Part shown: one piece after another, positions 17,087 to 26,917 of the stretch
Layout: each line of letters opens with the position of its first letter
Numbering within the stretch: position 1 is the first letter of the stretch
IMG/VR virus record: IMGVR_UViG_3300050126_000054
Span: 1-26,917 of that record
Reading direction: 5' to 3' (one strand)
DNA length: 26,917 nucleotides
Origin: a virus
Position numbers and translations under genes: made by a program
The notes under the pieces: generated by a model
Databases searched by the model: none
What the model was told of the DNA's origin: nothing
The model's input: the letters and a program-made list of their open reading frames with translations, nothing else

Positions 17087-19002
17087 TGGCTGATATTGCT
17101 GACAACGGTTCATTCAACCTCGGTCTTGCGAACATCAATTCGCAAAACTTCGGGCCGACGGCTGTCGCTAATCAGCAGCAGACGCAGGCGAACACACAGA
17201 ACATCCAGCAACAGACTCAAGCGGCTGCGATGCAGAACAAGATCATGTCGGCACGCATGCCGCTGATCTTGTCGCAGCTGAACGATGAGACCTCGGGACA
17301 GAGCGACAAGTCTGGTGCTACCGGGCTTAAAGGTCCGGCGAGCCAGGGCGGTCCAGGAGACCAGCCGACTACGCCCGGCTCTGATATCGCGGACGAAGAT
17401 AAGTCCGCGGTCAACCCTGACCAGAATTTCTATCAGCCCGCGCTGATCGATGCCGCGCTACGCTCGAAGTATTTCGTGCCGCAGTACACGCCGCAAGAGA
17501 TGCAGGCGCTGCAGAAGGCGTATCGCGTAGATCCGCAAAATCAGTACGGTATGGGTCCGCAACGCGTGATGGCTATGCACGACATGCGCGTCCAGTCACA
17601 GACTCAGCAGAATCAGATGGGTGCTCGCGACGACTTCGACAAGATGCACGCCGTGACCGACGCGCCCGATGGCAACGCGATGGACGTGCTCGAAGCCTCG
17701 CACCCTGAGACTGTCGCCGCGATCCGCAAGCAATTCGCGAAGGATCCCGATGCTGCGATGGACGAAGACGCCGCCGCGCGCATGTTCGCATCGCACGTCG
17801 CGGGTGCTGTTCACCAATACACCGGCCGCGAGGCTGTGAAGGGCGACGATGGCGTGTATCGCGACAAGGACACCGGGATCACAATCCCCGGCGTCGAGAA
17901 GGTCGGCCTGTCGACCGATCAGTACATCAAACTCGCGCACGAAGCGATCACGCCGTCTGTCGATATGCCAGACGGCAGTGGCGGCTCGATAAAGGTCGCG
18001 CCGTGGAAGGCAGCGCAGATGTCTGGCGCGAAGAACATCAACGGTCCTGGCGACTGGATGATGGTCCGTGCCTCGCAGCTCGGCATGCCCGGCGCTGCGT
18101 CGACATTGAGCGGCAACAGCGCGCAGAAGCAAGAGGCGCGCGCGACCGCTCAGTCCGCACTTGATAACGTGCAGGGTCAGCACGCCGCTGCGCCCGCGAC
18201 GAACCCGAGCGGCCAACCGAAGTCGCAGAACGGCACCGGCAGCGCGCGAAACGCTCAGGGCAACATCGACCCGCAGCTTACCGACGCCCTGCACGATGAC
18301 AAGTACGACTATACGCCGACGAACAACGGTCAGCCGTACAAGCCTGCCATCGGCGCCACGCCGCCGCCGCAAGTCATGGAGGATATGAAGAACCAGACCG
18401 CGGCCCGCAACGATCTCGCCAAGACCTCGAACCAAGGTGTTGGTGCCGCGTCCGCTGCTCTCACGATGTACAAGGCCGCTCAGGACGTGCTCGCCAAGGG
18501 TAACTACGACGGCGGCGCGTGGAACGCGGAGCTGGCGAAGTATTCGAAGTGGCTACCCGCCGGCTGGCAGAATCATATGACTGGAGACTATCAGGAGACC
18601 GCTAAGTATCTTGGCACCGCGGCGCTGCAGTCTGGCAAAGGTATCTTCGCCAAGATGACGCAGATGGAGGCGAAGATGCTGGTCAACGAGCTGAACCCGT
18701 CGCCGAGCATGGATCCTGGTGCGTTGCGCGACATGATTAGCAAAGGCGCCAGCATGGCGCAGTACAGTCTCGACTCGTCTAAGCGTGTCCCGGCGTACCT
18801 GCACGCAGGCAAAGACGCTAACCAGTTCAACTCCTGGAATCAAGAGCATTTCCCGATGCAGACCGAGACACAGCCGACGACGGCGAAGCCGAACGCGGGT
18901 GTCGCACCCGCCCCGAAATATACTGATGCACAGGTGAGAATGTACATGCAGAAGCACGGACTCCAGGACGAGCAAGCAACGCGCAAAGCGCTGGGGATGT
19001 AA
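17086..19002 (+). CDS. DNA-ejection / internal virion protein (638 aa)
   Basis: It is the second of three large proteins between lysis and tail fibres. The N-terminus is rich in Q, N and A (VANQQQTQANTQNIQQQTQA), which predicts helical, surface-active segments. A helical centre follows (YTPQEMQALQKAYRVDPQNQ; PETVAAIRKQFAKDPDAAMD), with a linker rich in P, N, Q and G at about 350-430. The last third is helical (GVGAASAALTMYKAAQDVLA; QMEAKMLVNELNPSPSMDPG), and the end is a short DNA-binding-like helix (YTDAQVRMYMQKHGLQDEQA). This layout is usual for ejection proteins of the P22 gp20/gp16 group, but I cannot assign it to a named one. ATG 17086 and ATG 19002 both overlap the previous stop, so the three proteins should be made together. 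Confidence 0.65.
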   Translation: MADIADNGSFNLGLANINSQNFGPTAVANQQQTQANTQNIQQQTQAAAMQNKIMSARMPLILSQLNDETSGQSDKSGATGLKGPASQGGPGDQPTTPGSDIADEDKSAVNPDQNFYQPALIDAALRSKYFVPQYTPQEMQALQKAYRVDPQNQYGMGPQRVMAMHDMRVQSQTQQNQMGARDDFDKMHAVTDAPDGNAMDVLEASHPETVAAIRKQFAKDPDAAMDEDAAARMFASHVAGAVHQYTGREAVKGDDGVYRDKDTGITIPGVEKVGLSTDQYIKLAHEAITPSVDMPDGSGGSIKVAPWKAAQMSGAKNINGPGDWMMVRASQLGMPGAASTLSGNSAQKQEARATAQSALDNVQGQHAAAPATNPSGQPKSQNGTGSARNAQGNIDPQLTDALHDDKYDYTPTNNGQPYKPAIGATPPPQVMEDMKNQTAARNDLAKTSNQGVGAASAALTMYKAAQDVLAKGNYDGGAWNAELAKYSKWLPAGWQNHMTGDYQETAKYLGTAALQSGKGIFAKMTQMEAKMLVNELNPSPSMDPGALRDMISKGASMAQYSLDSSKRVPAYLHAGKDANQFNSWNQEHFPMQTETQPTTAKPNAGVAPAPKYTDAQVRMYMQKHGLQDEQATRKALGM

Positions 19003-22000
19003 TGGCCGATGACACTGTAGACATCAGCGGGATGCCTGACCCGACGACCATCGGGCTCAGCCCGACTGCGCAGGCGGATCCTACCGTCGACATGCCCACC
19101 CCTCGCCAGGTGTACTACCACCGGATGGGCTACGACAAGCCGGGCAATATGCCGAAGGAGACCCCGAGCGACTCGGAGGTCCAGCGGTTCATGAGTGACC
19201 CGGACGCATTCCCTGACATGAGCAAGCCGCAGAAGACCGGCCGCCAGATGCTGTCATCGCTCTCCGGTCTCCCGAGCATCGCCGCGCAGGCGAACCCGGT
19301 CACGCCGATCGTGGCGGGCGCGGTCGGCGGCCTGAACGCGCTGCCGGCCTCGGCCGGCGCCATACTGGCGGGGACGGTAGGGAACGACCCGGACGAGGCC
19401 GCCAGGCTCGGAGAAGTGGCGAGAAAGAAACTGATGAGCGGCGCGGGCGCGGTCTACAACCTAGCGAACTACCTACCCTCCAAGATCATCACCAAGGAAG
19501 GCCAAGAGTACGCTGACCGCGTGCTCTCGCTACCGCAACAGATAGCGAAGTCCGCCGAGCCCGCACTCAACGCCACCATCGGCGAGCCCGCCACCACGTC
19601 GCTAGGCGAGTGGGGCACGGGCGCCGCCACCCTCCTCCCGGCGGCCGGCGCCAAGGGGCTCGCTTTGCGCGGGGTAGGGCTCGCGAAGGCCGGCGCCGGG
19701 GCCGTGGCGGACGCGGTCAGGGGAGGCGCCGCGCCAGAGGGGACAACCTACGACCAGGCCGGGAACGTACAGGCGCCGTCCACCGCCCTCAAGCCGGACG
19801 TTGACGCGCCGGTCACGGGCGACAGCCTCCGCGCGCAGCCGAACCCGATACCCGCCCCTGAGGGTACCGTACACCGTACCCTCACCGAGGAGGGTAAGTC
19901 ACCGGCCTCCCTTGCGCCGGAGGCAGCGGCGGCCGAGCCCTCACCGGCCCCGCCGAGCCCCGCCTTCGAGTCGCCGGACGCACCCCCTGCGGAAGCTCCT
20001 ACGGCGCCCGTAGCGCCGTCCGCGGCCGAGCCCTCCCCATCCCCTGCCGAGACGCCGTCCGCCGGGGAGCCGCCAGCGCCGCTCGCCGGGGCTACCGCCG
20101 CAGGTGACAGCCAGCGCGGCTCCGCGCAGCTCTTCAACCAGCCGTCCGACACCGGCCCCCAGGCGACCCCTGAGCCGGCGCAGCAGAGCGCCCGCGCGCA
20201 GCACCTTGACGATATCGACCAGCTCTCGGGCGGCATGCTGCCGTCCCGCCGGGCCTCGGCACTCTCCGGCGACTACAACGCGACCGGCGACGACTACCAG
20301 CTGAAGGAGGTGGGCTCCGAGCCGATGCGGCAGCAACTCGCGTCTGAGAACGACGCGATGCACGCCGCCGCCGAGAACGTGCACGCGAGCACCGGCTCCC
20401 AGTTCGCCAACAGCGTTGACCCGCAGACGCTGTCCGACCGCGGCCGGGTGACTCGGGGCGCGATCCAAAATATCCAGGACTTCTTCCAGAAGGCCACCGA
20501 CCAGTCGTACGACGCCGCCCGCGCGCTGAGCGGCGACAAGCCGATGCCGAACTTCTTGGGGCGGGTGGATCATTTCCTGAAGGACGACGCCAACTACATG
20601 CCGGAGGGGTTCCGCAAGTCGGCGCAGGCGCGTTTAAACCAGCTGAAGACGGCGGGCGACAACGGCATAGCGTCGGGGTCCACCCCCGCTGCGCCCAGCT
20701 CTGTCGCGGCCGCTGAGAAGTTTCGCGAGTGGCTAAACCAGAACCGCACGCTCGACAACATGCACACCGTCAAGCAGATGGTGGACCACACCGACACCGA
20801 CGTCGCCGAGCACGGCGGGCCGGGCCTCTTCCAGACCGCGCGCAACATGCGACGCCAGCAGTTCCAGATGCTGGAGGAGCCTGTCGGCATCAAGAAGCTG
20901 CTGACACCCGCGGACAGCCAGGGCATCAACCACGCGATCCCTGAGCACAAGGTGATGGACTACATCGCCGACCTGCCGCGCGAGCAACACGAGCACGTCC
21001 TGAACGTGCTACGCGCGGGCGCGCACCTGGGCGGTGGCGAGCTGGCGGAGGGTAGCGCCGGAGCGATCCGCGAGATCCAGGCGCACATGATCAGCCGGAT
21101 GCACGACGCCGCGACAAACGCGGACGGGACATGGAACGCGCGCAAGTTCTACAATCAGGCATCGAGCTACGCGCCGAAGCTTGGCGACACATTCAAGGAC
21201 CAGCCGAAGACGCTCAGGAACCTGCAAACCCTCAACCGTGCCGGGAACACGCTCTCGATGGACAAGCACTACCCTGGCGCCGCAGCGCAAGCCGAGAGGA
21301 CCGGGCTCGGTACGAAGGTCCTTAAGGGTGTCGGCGGTGTAGCGTCCAGCCTAGCGCACGAGATCCCGATAGCGGGGAGGCTCATCGGTCGCGGGATCGA
21401 GGGCGCGGTCGAGGGGATGTCCGAGAAGGGACGAGAGGCCGCGCGCGACAAGCTAGCGATGTCGCGGCTCGTCGACCGTAACGGGAAGCAGCGCGGATCT
21501 GTACGCGTGATGAACCCGGACGAAACTCCTGGCGCTCGCGTTAAGCAGGAATTCGATGAGAAGAACCTGCAGGACGCTCCTGCCGGTTATCTCGGCAAGC
21601 GCGTGGGCGCGGCTACGGCCGAAGTGTATCGCGATCCGGGCGACCCGAACGCCGTACACATAGAGAAGCTGACCGCTGATAAACCTGGGAGCGGTGCCGG
21701 CACGGCCGCGCTCCAGCACATCACCGACCTCGCGGACAAGCACGGTGCGCGTGTCACCTTGGACGCCGTCCCTCAAGGGATGAACAAGGTCTCTACCGCG
21801 CGCTTGAAAGCATATTACGAGCGTCACGGCTTTGAGTCTGACGGTCGCACTGAGAACTCGATGACGCGCGAGCCGCAGGGACCGGCCTCGACGCTCAACA
21901 TCGGCCTGCATCAAGGTGAGGCGGGCCAGACCGGCTTTCGCAAGATGAGCAAGCAGGAGGCTCAGGGGGCGGTAGAATCTACCGGCGCGAAGGTCACGAA

Positions 22001-22991
22001 GTCCTCCGTGCTCACGCCAAACGAACACGGCGTCGCCGAGCCTACGCTAGTCGCCAGCACGAACCGGCCGCTGTCAGATCCCGAGATGCAGTCCGTACTC
22101 CAGAAGACAAAGCGGTCGGCTATCCCACAGCGTACGGACGCTGGCGTCGAGTCGATGCACGTTGCGCCGGGACATGAAGAGATTGCGAAACGCGAGGGCT
22201 GGGACCAGTTCAATCCTGACTACTTCCGCGGCCACGACGGTAAGCCGTTGAGTGCCAAGATGTCCGGCCAGCGCGGATCGTTCTCGTTTCAGAACGATAA
22301 CGATCTGAACCGCGCGACGGGTGCAGCCCGTGACCGACAACGAGGTGCTGGAATTGAGCCTCGTAATGAACGGAACGAGCGCGTCGCCAATCAGCAAATG
22401 GGTGGCAAGCGGCCGCTATCAGCTGAGCAGAATGAGATTCTACGCCGGCTCTCAGGCCAGCGCGGCTCGGTACGCGTGATGAATGATAAGCAAAACGAAC
22501 TACCTGTTACAACTGAGCAGTCTGGTAAACCGAGGTGGCGCGGAGGCGATGAAGAAACCAAGCCCACGTTCAGCATAGAGGAAAATAAAGCGTACAGCAG
22601 CGGTGATGATAAGGATCGTCTTAAGTATTGGAACCAACTGCCGAAAGTCGGCACCCATGTGGACGGCTTAAAGGTTCGTGATCAAGTGCCGAACACTGAC
22701 TCTATATCCGGCTCATTCAGCCAGTATCATGTACTGTCTGGTATTAGGGAGATACCGTATTCGGCGTTTGAGAGCCATATCACCCCGTCAAGCTTACCGA
22801 GTAGACTGAAGAAACTTCGAGACGAAATATCGGAAAACAAAGAAATCAACCCACTCATCGTCGGCATCGATAAACAGGGGCCGTATATAATCGAAGGTGT
22901 ACATCGTTACGACTCTCTTCTGCATCTTGGTAAAACAAAGTTTCCAGCTAAAATCGTAGTTGGAAAATTCGATCATGATGAAGAAGAGTGA
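19002..22991 (+). CDS. Large ejected polyvalent protein with GNAT-like and ParB-like domains (1329 aa)
   Basis: The first 800 residues look like a DNA-ejection protein. There is a hydrophobic N-terminal region (PVTPIVAGAVGGLNALPASA), a proline/alanine/serine linker at about 280-400, and a helical core (IQDFFQKATDQSYDAARALS; NMHTVKQMVDHTDTDVAEHG). The last third adds enzyme-like modules. Residues about 860-957 resemble a GNAT acetyltransferase: HIEKLTADKPGSGAGTAALQ contains the acetyl-CoA loop GSGAGT (896-901), and LKAYYERHGFE (935-945) is the usual last helix. About 977-1086 is a further module (ending FNPDYFRGHDG). About 1270-1322 resembles ParB/sulfiredoxin nucleases: EINPLIV, GPYIIEGVHRYDSLLHLG with G1299, H1301 and R1302. 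In-frame Q-R-G-S seams occur at 371, 830, 1090 and 1153. GC falls steeply towards the 3' end. Activity of the domains is inferred. Confidence 0.78.
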   Translation: MADDTVDISGMPDPTTIGLSPTAQADPTVDMPTPRQVYYHRMGYDKPGNMPKETPSDSEVQRFMSDPDAFPDMSKPQKTGRQMLSSLSGLPSIAAQANPVTPIVAGAVGGLNALPASAGAILAGTVGNDPDEAARLGEVARKKLMSGAGAVYNLANYLPSKIITKEGQEYADRVLSLPQQIAKSAEPALNATIGEPATTSLGEWGTGAATLLPAAGAKGLALRGVGLAKAGAGAVADAVRGGAAPEGTTYDQAGNVQAPSTALKPDVDAPVTGDSLRAQPNPIPAPEGTVHRTLTEEGKSPASLAPEAAAAEPSPAPPSPAFESPDAPPAEAPTAPVAPSAAEPSPSPAETPSAGEPPAPLAGATAAGDSQRGSAQLFNQPSDTGPQATPEPAQQSARAQHLDDIDQLSGGMLPSRRASALSGDYNATGDDYQLKEVGSEPMRQQLASENDAMHAAAENVHASTGSQFANSVDPQTLSDRGRVTRGAIQNIQDFFQKATDQSYDAARALSGDKPMPNFLGRVDHFLKDDANYMPEGFRKSAQARLNQLKTAGDNGIASGSTPAAPSSVAAAEKFREWLNQNRTLDNMHTVKQMVDHTDTDVAEHGGPGLFQTARNMRRQQFQMLEEPVGIKKLLTPADSQGINHAIPEHKVMDYIADLPREQHEHVLNVLRAGAHLGGGELAEGSAGAIREIQAHMISRMHDAATNADGTWNARKFYNQASSYAPKLGDTFKDQPKTLRNLQTLNRAGNTLSMDKHYPGAAAQAERTGLGTKVLKGVGGVASSLAHEIPIAGRLIGRGIEGAVEGMSEKGREAARDKLAMSRLVDRNGKQRGSVRVMNPDETPGARVKQEFDEKNLQDAPAGYLGKRVGAATAEVYRDPGDPNAVHIEKLTADKPGSGAGTAALQHITDLADKHGARVTLDAVPQGMNKVSTARLKAYYERHGFESDGRTENSMTREPQGPASTLNIGLHQGEAGQTGFRKMSKQEAQGAVESTGAKVTKSSVLTPNEHGVAEPTLVASTNRPLSDPEMQSVLQKTKRSAIPQRTDAGVESMHVAPGHEEIAKREGWDQFNPDYFRGHDGKPLSAKMSGQRGSFSFQNDNDLNRATGAARDRQRGAGIEPRNERNERVANQQMGGKRPLSAEQNEILRRLSGQRGSVRVMNDKQNELPVTTEQSGKPRWRGGDEETKPTFSIEENKAYSSGDDKDRLKYWNQLPKVGTHVDGLKVRDQVPNTDSISGSFSQYHVLSGIREIPYSAFESHITPSSLPSRLKKLRDEISENKEINPLIVGIDKQGPYIIEGVHRYDSLLHLGKTKFPAKIVVGKFDHDEEE
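19859..19884 (+). repeat. Perfect 9-bp hairpin inside the polyvalent-protein gene
   Basis: TGAGGGTAC (19859-19867) and GTACCCTCA (19876-19884) are exact inverted copies around the eight bases CGTACACC. They lie in the part that encodes the proline-rich linker. No T-run follows, so it is not a terminator. It may slow translation at the domain boundary or be chance. Confidence 0.45.
20112..20122 (+). repeat. Q-R-G-S seam repeat, copy a (short)
   Basis: CAGCGCGGCTC encodes Q371-R-G and the start of S, in the reading frame. These eleven bases are identical to the start of the copy at 22458 and differ in one base from those at 21489 and 22269. It lies where the proline-rich linker ends. Confidence 0.5.
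21489..21514 (+). repeat. Q-R-G-S seam repeat, copy b (26 bases)
   Basis: This direct repeat encodes QRGSVRVMN (residues 830-838) just before the GNAT-like module. It matches the copy at 22458-22483 in 24 of 26 bases, both copies being in the same reading frame. Confidence 0.75.
22269..22279 (+). repeat. Q-R-G-S seam repeat, copy c (short)
   Basis: CAGCGCGGATC encodes Q1090-R-G and the start of S. These eleven bases are identical to the start of copy b. The continuation, encoding FSFQN, diverges. It lies at the end of the middle module, after FRGHDGKPLSAKMSG. Confidence 0.6.
22458..22483 (+). repeat. Q-R-G-S seam repeat, copy d (26 bases)
   Basis: It encodes QRGSVRVMN (residues 1153-1161) and stands before the low-GC ParB-like module. 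It is 24/26 identical to copy b, about 970 bases upstream. Confidence 0.75.
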
Positions 22992-23768: not shown

Positions 23769-26045
23769 GTGAGCTATCCGACCGTACTCGGCCGCGCTGT
23801 TGAAGGTATGACCTATCGAGAGGCGCAAGTGTGCCTCGGTCCTAGGTGGGCGAATTCGTACTACCTGTTCTCTGTATCTGGCGGCAACACGCTGACCAAC
23901 ATATACACTAACGGGACCCTGACGACGCCTTTCGCAAACACCGGCCGCGCGACAGCGGATGCGTACGGCCGGTTCCAGCCGATCTACCTCGACCCATCGA
24001 TCATCTATCGCGTGCGCTTCTTCAACAGCGCTGGCGTGCAGCAGTGGCAATCAGACCCTTACTACTCGCAGCTATCGACCGTCGGCACATCCTCGCTCAG
24101 CACTTACGGTTTTCAGATTGCGACGACGGGTGAGGTGACCCTCGACGCGCCGGCAACTGGCGGCACGGGCATCACGCTGACGTTGAGCGCTGGTGCGCTC
24201 GGCACAACGGCGCTTCAAGTAACCGGCACGCTGGCCGGCAACTCCGCGATCATTATCAACAGCTCGGCGACGACGGGTACGCAGACGGCAACGTTCGCGG
24301 CGACCAACAAGCCGGGCACGGCGACCTCTTCGCCCGCCGGCTGGCTGCCGATCACCTGCGATGGCGTGCAGTACTACACGCCGATCTGGCACGGCAACAA
24401 CTTCACTCCGTACGCGCCTAACCCGACAGCTGTCGGCGAGATCATCGTGGCAAGCTCGGTCACGTTCGGCGGCAACGGGCTCACGACCGCGGTGAACGGC
24501 ACCGCGACGCCAGGCAACTGGTTCTCACCGACGACCGCCGGTATCGGCGCCGGTTACTACATCAAGATCACGAAGACGAGCGGCCTGTCGGGTGTGAACT
24601 TCAGCGCGGCGAACGGCTCGTACGCCAACATCACGAGCGGCGGCCTGACGATCACCTCTAACGCGCAGGCGACGATTACCGGCACGTACACACTATCGTC
24701 TAGCGTCAGCGGATCGCCGATTGTGGCTGCCGGCACCATAACTTTGTCGAATAACAACGGCGTGCAGAGCCCGACCTACAATGGAGTCACGCCAGTCAAC
24801 TTCGACGGCGACGGTACCGCTACAGTCAACGGCGTTGCATCTTCGAACTGGTACGCCCCCACCACCGCCAGCATAGGTGCGAGCTATTACCTGCTGATAA
24901 CGCAGACCGGCGGCACCGCTGGATACAGCTTCAGCGCGGGAACTGGCACGCCGGTCCTTATCTCGTCCGGCGGCATCAGCATAGGTATAACTGGCACGGG
25001 CACGCCGACGAACTTCGTCACTGGCACCTATCAGATCTCCAGCGACTCCGCTGGCACGGTAGTTCTGGGCACCGGAACGATCACGATCAACGGCTCGCCC
25101 GTGCAATCTCCAAACTACAGCGGTACCTCTCCGCTGGTGCTCGCTGGCAATGGAACGGCGACAGTCGGAGGCGTTGGCGCGGGCAATTGGTACTCGCCGA
25201 CGACCTCAAACGTCGGTAGCGGGTATTGGATAGACATCACGCGCACGAGCGGGCAGAGCGGCGTTAACTTCAGCGCTGCACAAGGGTCGTGGACAAATAT
25301 CACGAACTCGGGTCTCAGCGTCGGACTCACCGGCTACAGCGGAACATATGTCGGAACTGTGACGGTTGGCGGAACGTACAACATCTCCAGCAGCTCGGGC
25401 GGCACCCCGGTGCTCGGGACTGGTACGATCTCGCTCAGTGTCTCCGGGCTCACCGTGCTGCACGTTTACACGACGCACACCACCGCGGTAGAAACCGCGC
25501 CCTCTGGATCTAGCCAGGTTACGGTAGAGTTGTTCGGCGCAGGATCGGGCGGCGGCGGCAGTAGCAACAGCAACGGCGGCGGTGGTGGCGGCGGTCCTGG
25601 GTACTGTCGCTCCAATATAACCATAAGCGGCGGTCAGACGTTGAACTACACACTGGCATCCGGCGGAGCTGGCGGTGCTGGTGCGGCGGTCACTGCTTCA
25701 AACGGCACGGCTGCGTCAGGCCCATCGACGGTAACGTCTGGAACTGCCACGATCACCACGATGACCGCGAACATCGGCGCGGTGGGGCATGGCGCGAACG
25801 GCACTTCGGCGGGCGCTGGCGGAGCTGGCGGTACGGCGACCGGCGGTACGCAAGCGAACACGACCGGTACTACTGGCGCTACCGGCACCATCACAGGCGG
25901 CATCGCGAACGGCGGCACCACTCCGTTCGGCGTGAACGCAAGCTATGTGCAGACGTATGGCGGCTCCGGCGCGTACTACTTCGCTAACACGCCTGAGAAC
26001 GGCGGCGCTGGATCCGACGGCGCTGCGATCTTCTACTACCAATAA
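23769..26045 (+). CDS. Long tail fibre / putative receptor-binding protein (758 aa)
   Basis: The first 215 residues repeat the plan of the previous protein (YRVRFFNSAGVQQWQSDPYY; ending WLPITCDGVQYYTPIWH). Three beta-rich repeats of about 110 residues follow (about 228-560), each with NW(F/Y)(S/A)PTT, then I-G-x-x-YY, then V/Y-N/S-FSA, then GT(G)TIT(L/I). The C-terminal part, from about 575, is VTVELFGAGSGGGG..., then seven glycines, then SGGQTLNYTLASGGAGGAGA. This matches the glycine-rich domain seen at the tips of phage fibres, where polyglycine helices display receptor-binding loops. The start is GTG 23769, one base after the previous stop and without a clear ribosome site, so it probably relies on coupling. 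Receptor binding is inferred from domain type and place. Confidence 0.75.
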   Translation: MSYPTVLGRAVEGMTYREAQVCLGPRWANSYYLFSVSGGNTLTNIYTNGTLTTPFANTGRATADAYGRFQPIYLDPSIIYRVRFFNSAGVQQWQSDPYYSQLSTVGTSSLSTYGFQIATTGEVTLDAPATGGTGITLTLSAGALGTTALQVTGTLAGNSAIIINSSATTGTQTATFAATNKPGTATSSPAGWLPITCDGVQYYTPIWHGNNFTPYAPNPTAVGEIIVASSVTFGGNGLTTAVNGTATPGNWFSPTTAGIGAGYYIKITKTSGLSGVNFSAANGSYANITSGGLTITSNAQATITGTYTLSSSVSGSPIVAAGTITLSNNNGVQSPTYNGVTPVNFDGDGTATVNGVASSNWYAPTTASIGASYYLLITQTGGTAGYSFSAGTGTPVLISSGGISIGITGTGTPTNFVTGTYQISSDSAGTVVLGTGTITINGSPVQSPNYSGTSPLVLAGNGTATVGGVGAGNWYSPTTSNVGSGYWIDITRTSGQSGVNFSAAQGSWTNITNSGLSVGLTGYSGTYVGTVTVGGTYNISSSSGGTPVLGTGTISLSVSGLTVLHVYTTHTTAVETAPSGSSQVTVELFGAGSGGGGSSNSNGGGGGGGPGYCRSNITISGGQTLNYTLASGGAGGAGAAVTASNGTAASGPSTVTSGTATITTMTANIGAVGHGANGTSAGAGGAGGTATGGTQANTTGTTGATGTITGGIANGGTTPFGVNASYVQTYGGSGAYYFANTPENGGAGSDGAAIFYYQ
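24450..24778 (+). repeat. Fibre repeat 1 of 3
   Basis: This unit encodes about 110 residues with GNWFSPTTAGIGAGYYIKIT and GVNFSAANGSYANITSGGLT. It is similar at protein level to the next two units. Confidence 0.7.
24779..25120 (+). repeat. Fibre repeat 2 of 3
   Basis: This unit has SNWYAPTTASIGASYYLLIT and GTYQISSDSAGTVVLGTGTI. It is the most divergent in the middle, where GYSFSAGTGTPV replaces the GVNFSAA stretch. Confidence 0.7.
25121..25446 (+). repeat. Fibre repeat 3 of 3
   Basis: This unit has GNWYSPTTSNVGSGYWIDIT, GVNFSAAQGSWTNI and GGTPVLGTGTISLSVSG. It is followed by the glycine-rich C-terminal domain. Confidence 0.7.
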
Positions 26046-26068
26046 AAAGAGGGGCGCCGAAGCGCCCC
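26042..26068 (-). terminator. Intrinsic terminator of the leftward SPFH transcript
   Basis: Read on the - strand, GGGGCGC and GCGCCCC form a 7-bp all-GC stem closed by the tetraloop TTCG, followed by TCTTTTTAT. This is a textbook Rho-independent terminator. It lies after the SPFH gene and immediately after the + strand fibre gene stop. On the + strand the stem is not followed by a T-run. Confidence 0.88.
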
Positions 26069-26089: not shown

Positions 26090-26623
26090 TCAAACAGGTA
26101 GATGCGCGTGTCCGCTCAGAGACACGCGCAAATTCTTCACTGGCGCCACGCCGGTCAGCTGTACCAGCTGAATCTCAACTCCCCACTTCCAACCGCGTTT
26201 ACGGCACTCGGCGGTCAACGCATCGCCGGTCTCTCCGTGCACGATAGCACTCCATGAGCAGTTGCTCAGCGTCGTACCGATGATGCCGGCGCAGCTATCT
26301 GCGATGGCGTCCTTCAGGTCAACGACATCGAGTAGCGCCGTCTGCACGTTGTGGATGCGGTACGTGATCACCGCATCGAACCCAATCGCTTTCCCGTCGA
26401 TTGTCGTCGTGGCTAGTCCGGTAAGCCGCTCCGTACGCGGCACCACATGGTCGGTCACCAGATGGTCCGCGAACGGGATCTTCCAGTACCACTTCCCTCC
26501 GTCGAGCACTCGCAGCAGCTTTCCCATCCGCAGCTGAACGCCCCCGTTGTATGGAGGGACGATCTCTATCGGGATCAGCTCGCTCCAGATCTCTCGAAGG
26601 ATGTCGATCAGCTTGTCGAACAT
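26090..26623 (-). CDS. SPFH / band-7 (stomatin-like) protein (177 aa)
   Basis: The chain runs IPIEIVPPYNGGVQLRMGKL, then GGKWYWKIPFADHLVTDHVV, TERLTGLATTTIDGKAIGFD, AVITYRIHNVQTALLDVVDL, and ends with the segment VEIQLVQLTGVAPVKNLRV. This is the order of an SPFH domain, as in stomatin, prohibitin and FtsH regulators HflK/HflC: G.V...G......PG....P, T.DG..+..D....YR+, and a last strand ...GV.+..+.+. The enzyme-free family oligomerises on membranes. The N-terminus has an amphipathic/hydrophobic helix (DKLIDILREIWSELIPI) rather than a clear TM. The usual long C-terminal coiled coil is missing. AGGAG lies six bases before the ATG at 26623. It is transcribed against the late operon. A role in protecting or altering the host membrane is inferred. 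Confidence 0.82.
   Translation of the reverse strand: MFDKLIDILREIWSELIPIEIVPPYNGGVQLRMGKLLRVLDGGKWYWKIPFADHLVTDHVVPRTERLTGLATTTIDGKAIGFDAVITYRIHNVQTALLDVVDLKDAIADSCAGIIGTTLSNCSWSAIVHGETGDALTAECRKRGWKWGVEIQLVQLTGVAPVKNLRVSLSGHAHLPV
26103..26130 (+). repeat. Perfect 10-bp hairpin at the convergent gene ends
   Basis: TGCGCGTGTC (26103-26112) and GACACGCGCA (26121-26130) are exact inverted copies around CGCTCAGA. On the + strand AATTCTTC follows, a weak T-rich run, so it may stop or stabilise the late mRNA. On the - strand it encodes the last residues of the SPFH protein. Confidence 0.5.
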
Positions 26624-26626
26624 AGA

Positions 26627-26917
26627 CTACTCCTGGTTCAAGGGGAAGCGGTCGTCGTTCAGCTCGAACGGCGCCTTAGCTTCCTCGCGCTCGATGGTCA
26701 GCTCCAGTTCAGCGCCTATGCGCCACATCGCCTCGGCCAGCACGTACACCTTCTCGATGCCCGTGAGCTTCGCCACTTCCGGCGGCACCATCTCGAACAC
26801 CTTGCCGTCGACTGCGGCTTCGAGCATGTGCCGCGCGCCGCTGCCGAGCTGGTCCGTGCTCTTGCCGCGGTTCCAGTTGATGTCCGCCGGTTCGCGGTCA
26901 GGGTTATAGCGCACGTT
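26627..26917 (-). CDS. Hypothetical protein upstream of the SPFH gene (may extend past the window)
   Basis: About 95 residues are visible, from a possible GTG start at 26914. The frame is still open at the right edge (26915-26917), so the true start may lie outside. It contains REPADINWNRGKSTDQLGSG, a helical middle (GARHMLEAAVDGKVFEMVPP; VYVLAEAMWRIGAELELTIE) and an acidic end. It has no membrane segment. Its TAG is four bases before the SPFH start and the ribosome site of the SPFH gene lies within its last codons, so the two are surely one operon. I do not recognise the family. Confidence 0.6.
   Translation of the reverse strand, partial: NVRYNPDREPADINWNRGKSTDQLGSGARHMLEAAVDGKVFEMVPPEVAKLTGIEKVYVLAEAMWRIGAELELTIEREEAKAPFELNDDRFPLNQE

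What the first reader, a model, noticed from the sequence alone, without database searches (positions are those of the whole stretch)
26090..26917. Phage SPFH/stomatin-like protein in its own leftward unit
The SPFH pattern is clear, but the usual C-terminal coiled coil is absent and the N-terminus is an amphipathic helix. It is coupled to an unknown upstream gene, faces the late operon and has a strong private terminator, as accessory (moron-like) genes often do. SPFH proteins organise membrane patches and regulate FtsH-type proteases, so a phage form could block superinfection, protect the membrane from the holin until the right time, or control a host membrane protease that degrades phage proteins.
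Basis: partly seen in the sequence, partly recalled or inferred. Interest (0 to 1): 0.62.

Follow-up and report, generated by a model that had tools for sequence, protein, structure and literature searches.

The report
Compact phage-specific SPFH membrane protein
This phage gene makes a stripped-down member of a widespread family of membrane-organising ring proteins; the same short form recurs in several unrelated short-tailed phages, so it probably helps phages manage the host's inner membrane, but its exact job is not known.

Summary
The SPFH call is right. ORF 26090-26623(-), 177 aa, matches Pfam Band_7 (E=5.1e-13) and folds like stomatin (AlphaFold pLDDT 81.7; first model Foldseek E=6e-13). 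It ends where the SPFH domain ends: no coiled coil, no C-terminal cap. The N-terminus is a conserved amphipathic helix without a clear transmembrane span. Purifying selection is strong (dN/dS 0.05-0.27).
It is not in "its own unit". In every relative where upstream genes are visible it is the last gene of the leftward replication run (polA, SNF2 helicase, phosphoesterase). The terminator belongs to the operon end: the one relative lacking the SPFH gene keeps it, with an HslV-family peptidase and a SprT-like gene in the slot.
The protein belongs to a tight 170-185 aa phage clade, separate from sampled cellular SPFH proteins (98/99 support). It also sits between portal and scaffold in 71 of 71 testable loci of a crAss-related lineage, and in four further phage contexts. 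Nearest named relatives of that lineage lack it, so it is an acquired accessory gene.
Best reading: an open, dome-less, cytoplasmic-side membrane organiser. The specific function stays open; direct control of HflKC-FtsH is disfavoured by topology. New variant of a known kind.

The parts
26090..26623 (-). Compact SPFH protein, 177 aa, complete ORF
   Evidence: Band_7 5.1e-13; stomatin fold; homologues of 170-185 aa
26579..26620 (-). N-terminal amphipathic helix (residues 2-15)
   Evidence: AlphaFold helix 2-15; moment 0.64, shuffle P about 0.007; recurs in homologues found without the N-terminal motif
26123..26563 (-). SPFH domain, residues 21-167
   Evidence: Pfam Band_7 profile positions 2-153 of 176
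26630..26634 (-). Ribosome-binding site AGGAG, overlapping the end of the upstream ORF
   Evidence: sequence reading
26627..26917 (-). Upstream coupled ORF (cut by the window end); full-length homologues match dATP/dGTP diphosphohydrolase N-domain weakly
   Evidence: PF18909 E=0.0064, below cut-off
26044..26068 (-). Intrinsic terminator (stem 26051-26068 plus T tract) ending the leftward operon
   Evidence: same hairpin in 10 of 11 SPFH-bearing sequences checked and in SPFH-less L142
23769..26045 (+). Last gene of the late operon (758-aa tail/fibre-like protein), convergent with the SPFH gene

Best explanation
The gene encodes a minimal SPFH protein: an N-terminal amphipathic helix that lies on or in the membrane, then the complete SPFH domain, and nothing else. 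Shown: the SPFH fold (prediction), the lack of coiled coil and cap, strong purifying selection, membership of a phage compact clade, and its place as last gene of the replication operon in this phage family. Inferred: it sits on the cytoplasmic face of the inner membrane and self-associates side by side through its SPFH domains into an open ring or patch. It cannot build the closed dome of HflKC, QmcA or prohibitin, because those domes are built by the coiled coils and C-terminal regions that it lacks. Inferred, less sure: during infection this scaffold organises or stabilises the host inner membrane for the phage, for example keeping it sealed and energised during replication and assembly. 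It is an accessory gene, not core machinery.
For: Band_7 and stomatin matches; SPFH fold with a 34-sequence alignment, pLDDT 81.7; first model Foldseek stomatin 6.2e-13; best viral match a 173-aa 'HflK' phage protein over its full length, TM 0.86/0.88. Homologues of 170-179 aa in 83 loci and 175-185 aa in further full-length loci. dN/dS 0.05-0.27. Clade separate from cellular proteins and one long phage protein, 98/99 support. Recurs in crAss-related phages (71 of 71 loci with upstream sequence), L095, L096, L014 and ctgrD200. No transmembrane span in the window protein: best 19-residue mean hydropathy 1.01. Domed SPFH structures have SPFH1-SPFH2 at the membrane and CC1, CC2 and C-terminal parts towards the narrow end (PMC12624060). 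SPFH proteins with membrane-protective roles exist in bacteria, e.g. YdjI recruiting PspA (PMC8581546).
Against: No experiment on this family was found. Helix net charge is negative and its lipid-binding score low, so membrane binding may rest on the SPFH1 face or on a partner. Some homologues reach hydropathy 1.7-1.9, so a membrane-spanning start cannot be excluded there. Self-association was not modelled. Genome position differs between lineages (replication end versus head module), which gives no single timing.
Confidence: 0.42

Rival explanations
1. Modulator of host SPFH complexes or membrane proteases: it co-assembles with a host SPFH protein, or poisons its cage, and so changes protease control.
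For: Nearest curated profile is HflK (TIGR01933, 7.6e-05 for the window protein and 1.2e-19 for a crAss-type homologue, all below its equivalog cut-off). In the SPFH-less relative the slot holds an HslV-family peptidase and a SprT-like gene. A coiled-coil-free SPFH subunit would be a natural cap or poison for a cage (inference).
Against: No signal peptide or clear transmembrane span, while HflKC and its FtsH contact are periplasmic (PMC12048511). Sequence is remote from sampled host proteins. The replacement is one case only.
Confidence: 0.2
2. Platform for virion assembly or genome entry: a membrane collar that places the portal, prohead or ejection apparatus.
For: Next to portal in 71 of 71 testable crAss-related loci, next to terminase in ctgrD200, next to ejection-like genes in L095 and L096. 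Where morphology can be inferred these are short-tailed phages.
Against: The nearest named relatives, Lbo-JY46 and phi4:1, have the same module without it. In the window's family it sits with replication genes instead.
Confidence: 0.15
3. Superinfection exclusion: a patch at the inner membrane that blocks DNA entry of related phages.
For: Membrane-apposed, small, accessory, carried by several unrelated phages, as exclusion genes often are (general knowledge of exclusion genes).
Against: Exclusion genes usually vary fast (general knowledge); this one is under steady purifying selection and fixed at one position within each lineage. It ends a replication operon rather than forming its own unit.
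Confidence: 0.13
4. Membrane anchor for phage DNA replication, given its operon.
For: Same run as polA, SNF2 helicase and phosphoesterase genes.
Against: In crAss-related phages it is in the head module.
Confidence: 0.1

Closest known systems
Stomatin / HflK-HflC / QmcA / prohibitin SPFH superfamily (Pfam PF01145)
   Same: Same fold and domain; significant profile and structure matches
   Different: Lacks the coiled coils and C-terminal cap; 177 aa. Of about 70 cellular matches from 41 genomes nearly all lie in open frames of 250 aa or more; the shorter ones are 231, 202 (stop inside), 194 and the misbinned phage contig
Phage SPFH lipoproteins (PHROG phrog_200; 534 phage records similar to the copy in G010)
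   Same: Phage-encoded SPFH domain
   Different: About 260-300 aa with a signal or lipobox-like start and C-terminal helices; the window protein scores only E=0.12 against phrog_200 and gives no hit in 50,697 phage records
UniProt A0A6J7WFI0, 'HflK' of an uncultured Caudovirales phage, 173 aa
   Same: Full-length structural match, TM 0.86/0.88, 26% identity: a compact SPFH protein
   Different: Uncultured-phage entry known to us only by its name, length and model; no function reported in what was read
MW202733.1 (Podoviridae sp. ctgrD200) 'prohibitin-like protein'
   Same: 179 aa when read from a GTG 21 bases before the matched stretch, same layout
   Different: About 19% identical to the window protein; lies after terminase; the deposited start removes the N-terminal helix

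Membership tests
SPFH/Band 7 superfamily (PF01145) | Significant profile match over the SPFH domain | tested here: met
   49.9 bits against cut-off 23.6, residues 21-167
SPFH/Band 7 superfamily (PF01145) | SPFH1-SPFH2 fold | tested here: met
   AlphaFold plus Foldseek against PDB, 61 matches at E<=0.001, headed by stomatin; second model pLDDT 81.7
Dome-forming SPFH (HflKC, QmcA, prohibitin, stomatin) | Coiled-coil helices and C-terminal region after the SPFH domain | tested here: not met
   Protein ends 16 residues after the last strand; homologues 170-185 aa
Dome-forming SPFH (HflKC, QmcA, prohibitin, stomatin) | N-terminal membrane anchor | tested here: inconclusive
   Amphipathic helix, hydropathy maximum 1.01; some homologues 1.7-1.9; low lipid-binding score
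Dome-forming SPFH (HflKC, QmcA, prohibitin, stomatin) | Ring oligomer on a membrane | not testable with these tools
   No multimer modelling offered
HflK/HflC (TIGR01933, TIGR01932) | Equivalog score above curated cut-off | tested here: not met
   hflK 22.3 bits against cut-off 159.4
phrog_200 phage SPFH lipoprotein | Profile match and signal/lipobox start | tested here: not met
   E=0.12; start MFDKLIDILREIW has no signal peptide or lipobox on reading
Moron (independent accessory unit) | Own promoter and terminator, inserted between core genes | tested here: not met
   No promoter match (sigma-70 consensus only); last gene of the operon; terminator kept without the gene
Moron (independent accessory unit) | Dispensable or variable between relatives | tested here: met
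   Absent in L142/G019; no gene at the crAss-type site in Lbo-JY46 and phi4:1

The most novel reading that the evidence does not exclude
A phage-specific SPFH class has shed the dome-building half of the family and works as an open membrane collar or patch. It has spread between unrelated short-tailed phages, and some phages carry it together with a long SPFH lipoprotein, placing SPFH scaffolds on both faces of the host inner membrane.
Probability: 0.25. Interest if true: 0.68.

Novelty: new variant of a known kind. Interest (0 to 1): 0.42.

Why it matters
SPFH proteins are found in all domains of life, yet what the SPFH domain does without its dome is hard to ask in cells. A natural, conserved, 177-residue SPFH-only protein under selection in phages is a small test object for that question. 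It also points to membrane organisation as a recurring need in infection that phage annotation has mostly passed over: no tested function for a phage SPFH protein was found in the papers searched.

Tried and rejected
Private transcription unit: rejected by relatives and by the terminator in the SPFH-less genome. Close relative in named phages: none. Prophage or host copy in bacterial genomes: a single hit, a phage contig in a Solirubrobacterales bin. Defence-system membership: no PADLOC match. PHROG family for the compact form: none for the window protein at E<=0.001. The N-terminal motif MFDKLIDI was one of the search patterns, so its conservation in the first loci is partly by selection; loci found through helicase or tail genes, and ctgrD200, show the same kind of helix and largely remove that concern. 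Literature searches for crAss-like plus SPFH or band 7, for Kayvirus SPFH lipoprotein, and for band 7 plus superinfection returned nothing; phage SPFH genes are reported without tested function. A first tree with the very divergent lipoprotein L118 placed it inside the compact rows on a branch of 5.6; treated as long-branch attraction and left out with one cellular long row. Host assignment was not resolved.

Full report
1. Observation. The ORF at 26090-26623 on the minus strand encodes 177 residues. Pfam Band_7 matches residues 21-167 with 49.9 bits against a cut-off of 23.6. A 12-sequence family profile finds stomatin (4e-16), QmcA, HflC and HflK among solved structures.

2. Anatomy. Helix 2-15, then the SPFH domain, last strand 149-161, then a 16-residue tail. 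There is no coiled coil. The helix moment is 0.64, reached by 68 of 10,000 shuffles, and no transmembrane span is evident (best 19-residue hydropathy 1.01). Net charge -2 gives a low lipid-binding score, so membrane attachment is likely but not shown. A ribosome-binding site overlaps the end of the upstream ORF, which fits translational coupling.

3. Family. A profile scan of viral contigs confirmed 222 relatives and kept 80 loci. Of the 83 loci read, all encode 170-179 aa; more distant members found through neighbouring genes have 185 aa. For comparison, of about 70 Band_7 matches in 41 bacterial genomes nearly all lie in frames of 250 aa or more. The tree puts 23 compact phage proteins on one side of a branch with 98/99 support against 25 others (cellular proteins and one long phage protein); two very long rows were left out, and the cellular sample is mainly one phylum plus Salmonella HflK and HflC. 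dN/dS among seven close homologues is 0.05-0.27.

4. Neighbourhood in the window's own family. The window stops 294 bases past the SPFH start, so relatives were used. In them the leftward strand carries polA, an SNF2 helicase, a phosphoesterase or a 558-residue protein, often a dATP/dGTP-diphosphohydrolase-like gene (weak, below cut-off), then SPFH, then a hairpin terminator, facing the tail genes. In L142 the same neighbours flank an HslV-family peptidase (phrog_1040, 4e-29) and a SprT-like ORF (below cut-off), with no SPFH gene in the 40.9-kb record and the hairpin still in place. The hairpin was found in ten of eleven SPFH-bearing sequences checked, the window included. The gene is thus the replaceable last cistron of an operon, not a private unit.

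5. Other phages. In a lineage related to crAss-like phages by terminase (41% to Leptolyngbya phage Lbo-JY46, 34% to Cellulophaga phi4:1, 26-29% to gut phages) the gene lies after portal and before the scaffold-like gene in 71 of 71 loci with upstream sequence. Lbo-JY46 and phi4:1 have terminase, portal, next gene and capsid with no SPFH gene between. Further contexts are L095, L096, L014 and podovirus ctgrD200. One phage, G010, has both the compact protein and a 280-aa SPFH protein of the lipoprotein type. The lipoprotein type is common in named phages (534 records); the compact type is nearly absent from them.

6. Mechanism. What follows from known SPFH structures is that SPFH1-SPFH2 lies at the membrane and that coiled coils and C-terminal parts build the dome (PMC12624060). 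A protein with only the first half could form an open ring or patch, or join and interrupt another SPFH assembly (inference). A membrane-organising or membrane-protecting role is the most likely single reading (0.42), with host-complex modulation, assembly platform, exclusion and replication anchoring as rivals.

7. Novelty. Phage SPFH genes are known (PMC1524935, PMC7326821, PMC13239085, PMC8540360), always without tested function in what was read; one paper proposes a link to lysogeny and another to adsorption or DNA entry. I found no description of a compact, coiled-coil-free phage class in the library searched, which lacks most subscription papers. A structural database entry (A0A6J7WFI0) shows that such a protein has been deposited under the name HflK. 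Verdict: new variant of a known kind.

Noticed in passing
L118:1584-2423(-) and L096:6001-6513(+), same phage G010: One phage carries two SPFH proteins: a 280-aa lipoprotein type (phrog_200) and the compact type, presumably on opposite faces of the inner membrane.
   Followed up: partly
L142:11754-12658(+): The SPFH-less relative has an HslV-family peptidase and a SprT-like metallopeptidase ORF in the SPFH slot.
   Followed up: partly
window 19002-22991(+): 1329-aa protein, probably ejected with the DNA, with a ParB-like C-terminus (phrog_1033, 1.1e-4) and a weak acetyltransferase-like stretch.
   Followed up: no
MW202733.1 40888-41427: The deposited start of the 'prohibitin-like protein' (41014) cuts off the N-terminal helix; a GTG behind AGGAGG gives 179 aa.
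   Followed up: yes
L004:6555-7208(-), L006, L106, L122: A JAB/DUF4329-like gene (near or below cut-off) often ends the late strand opposite the SPFH gene; absent in the window.
   Followed up: no
L106 (PLES01000138.1): A contig of this phage family is binned into a Solirubrobacterales metagenome-assembled genome; it may be a host clue or a binning error.
   Followed up: no
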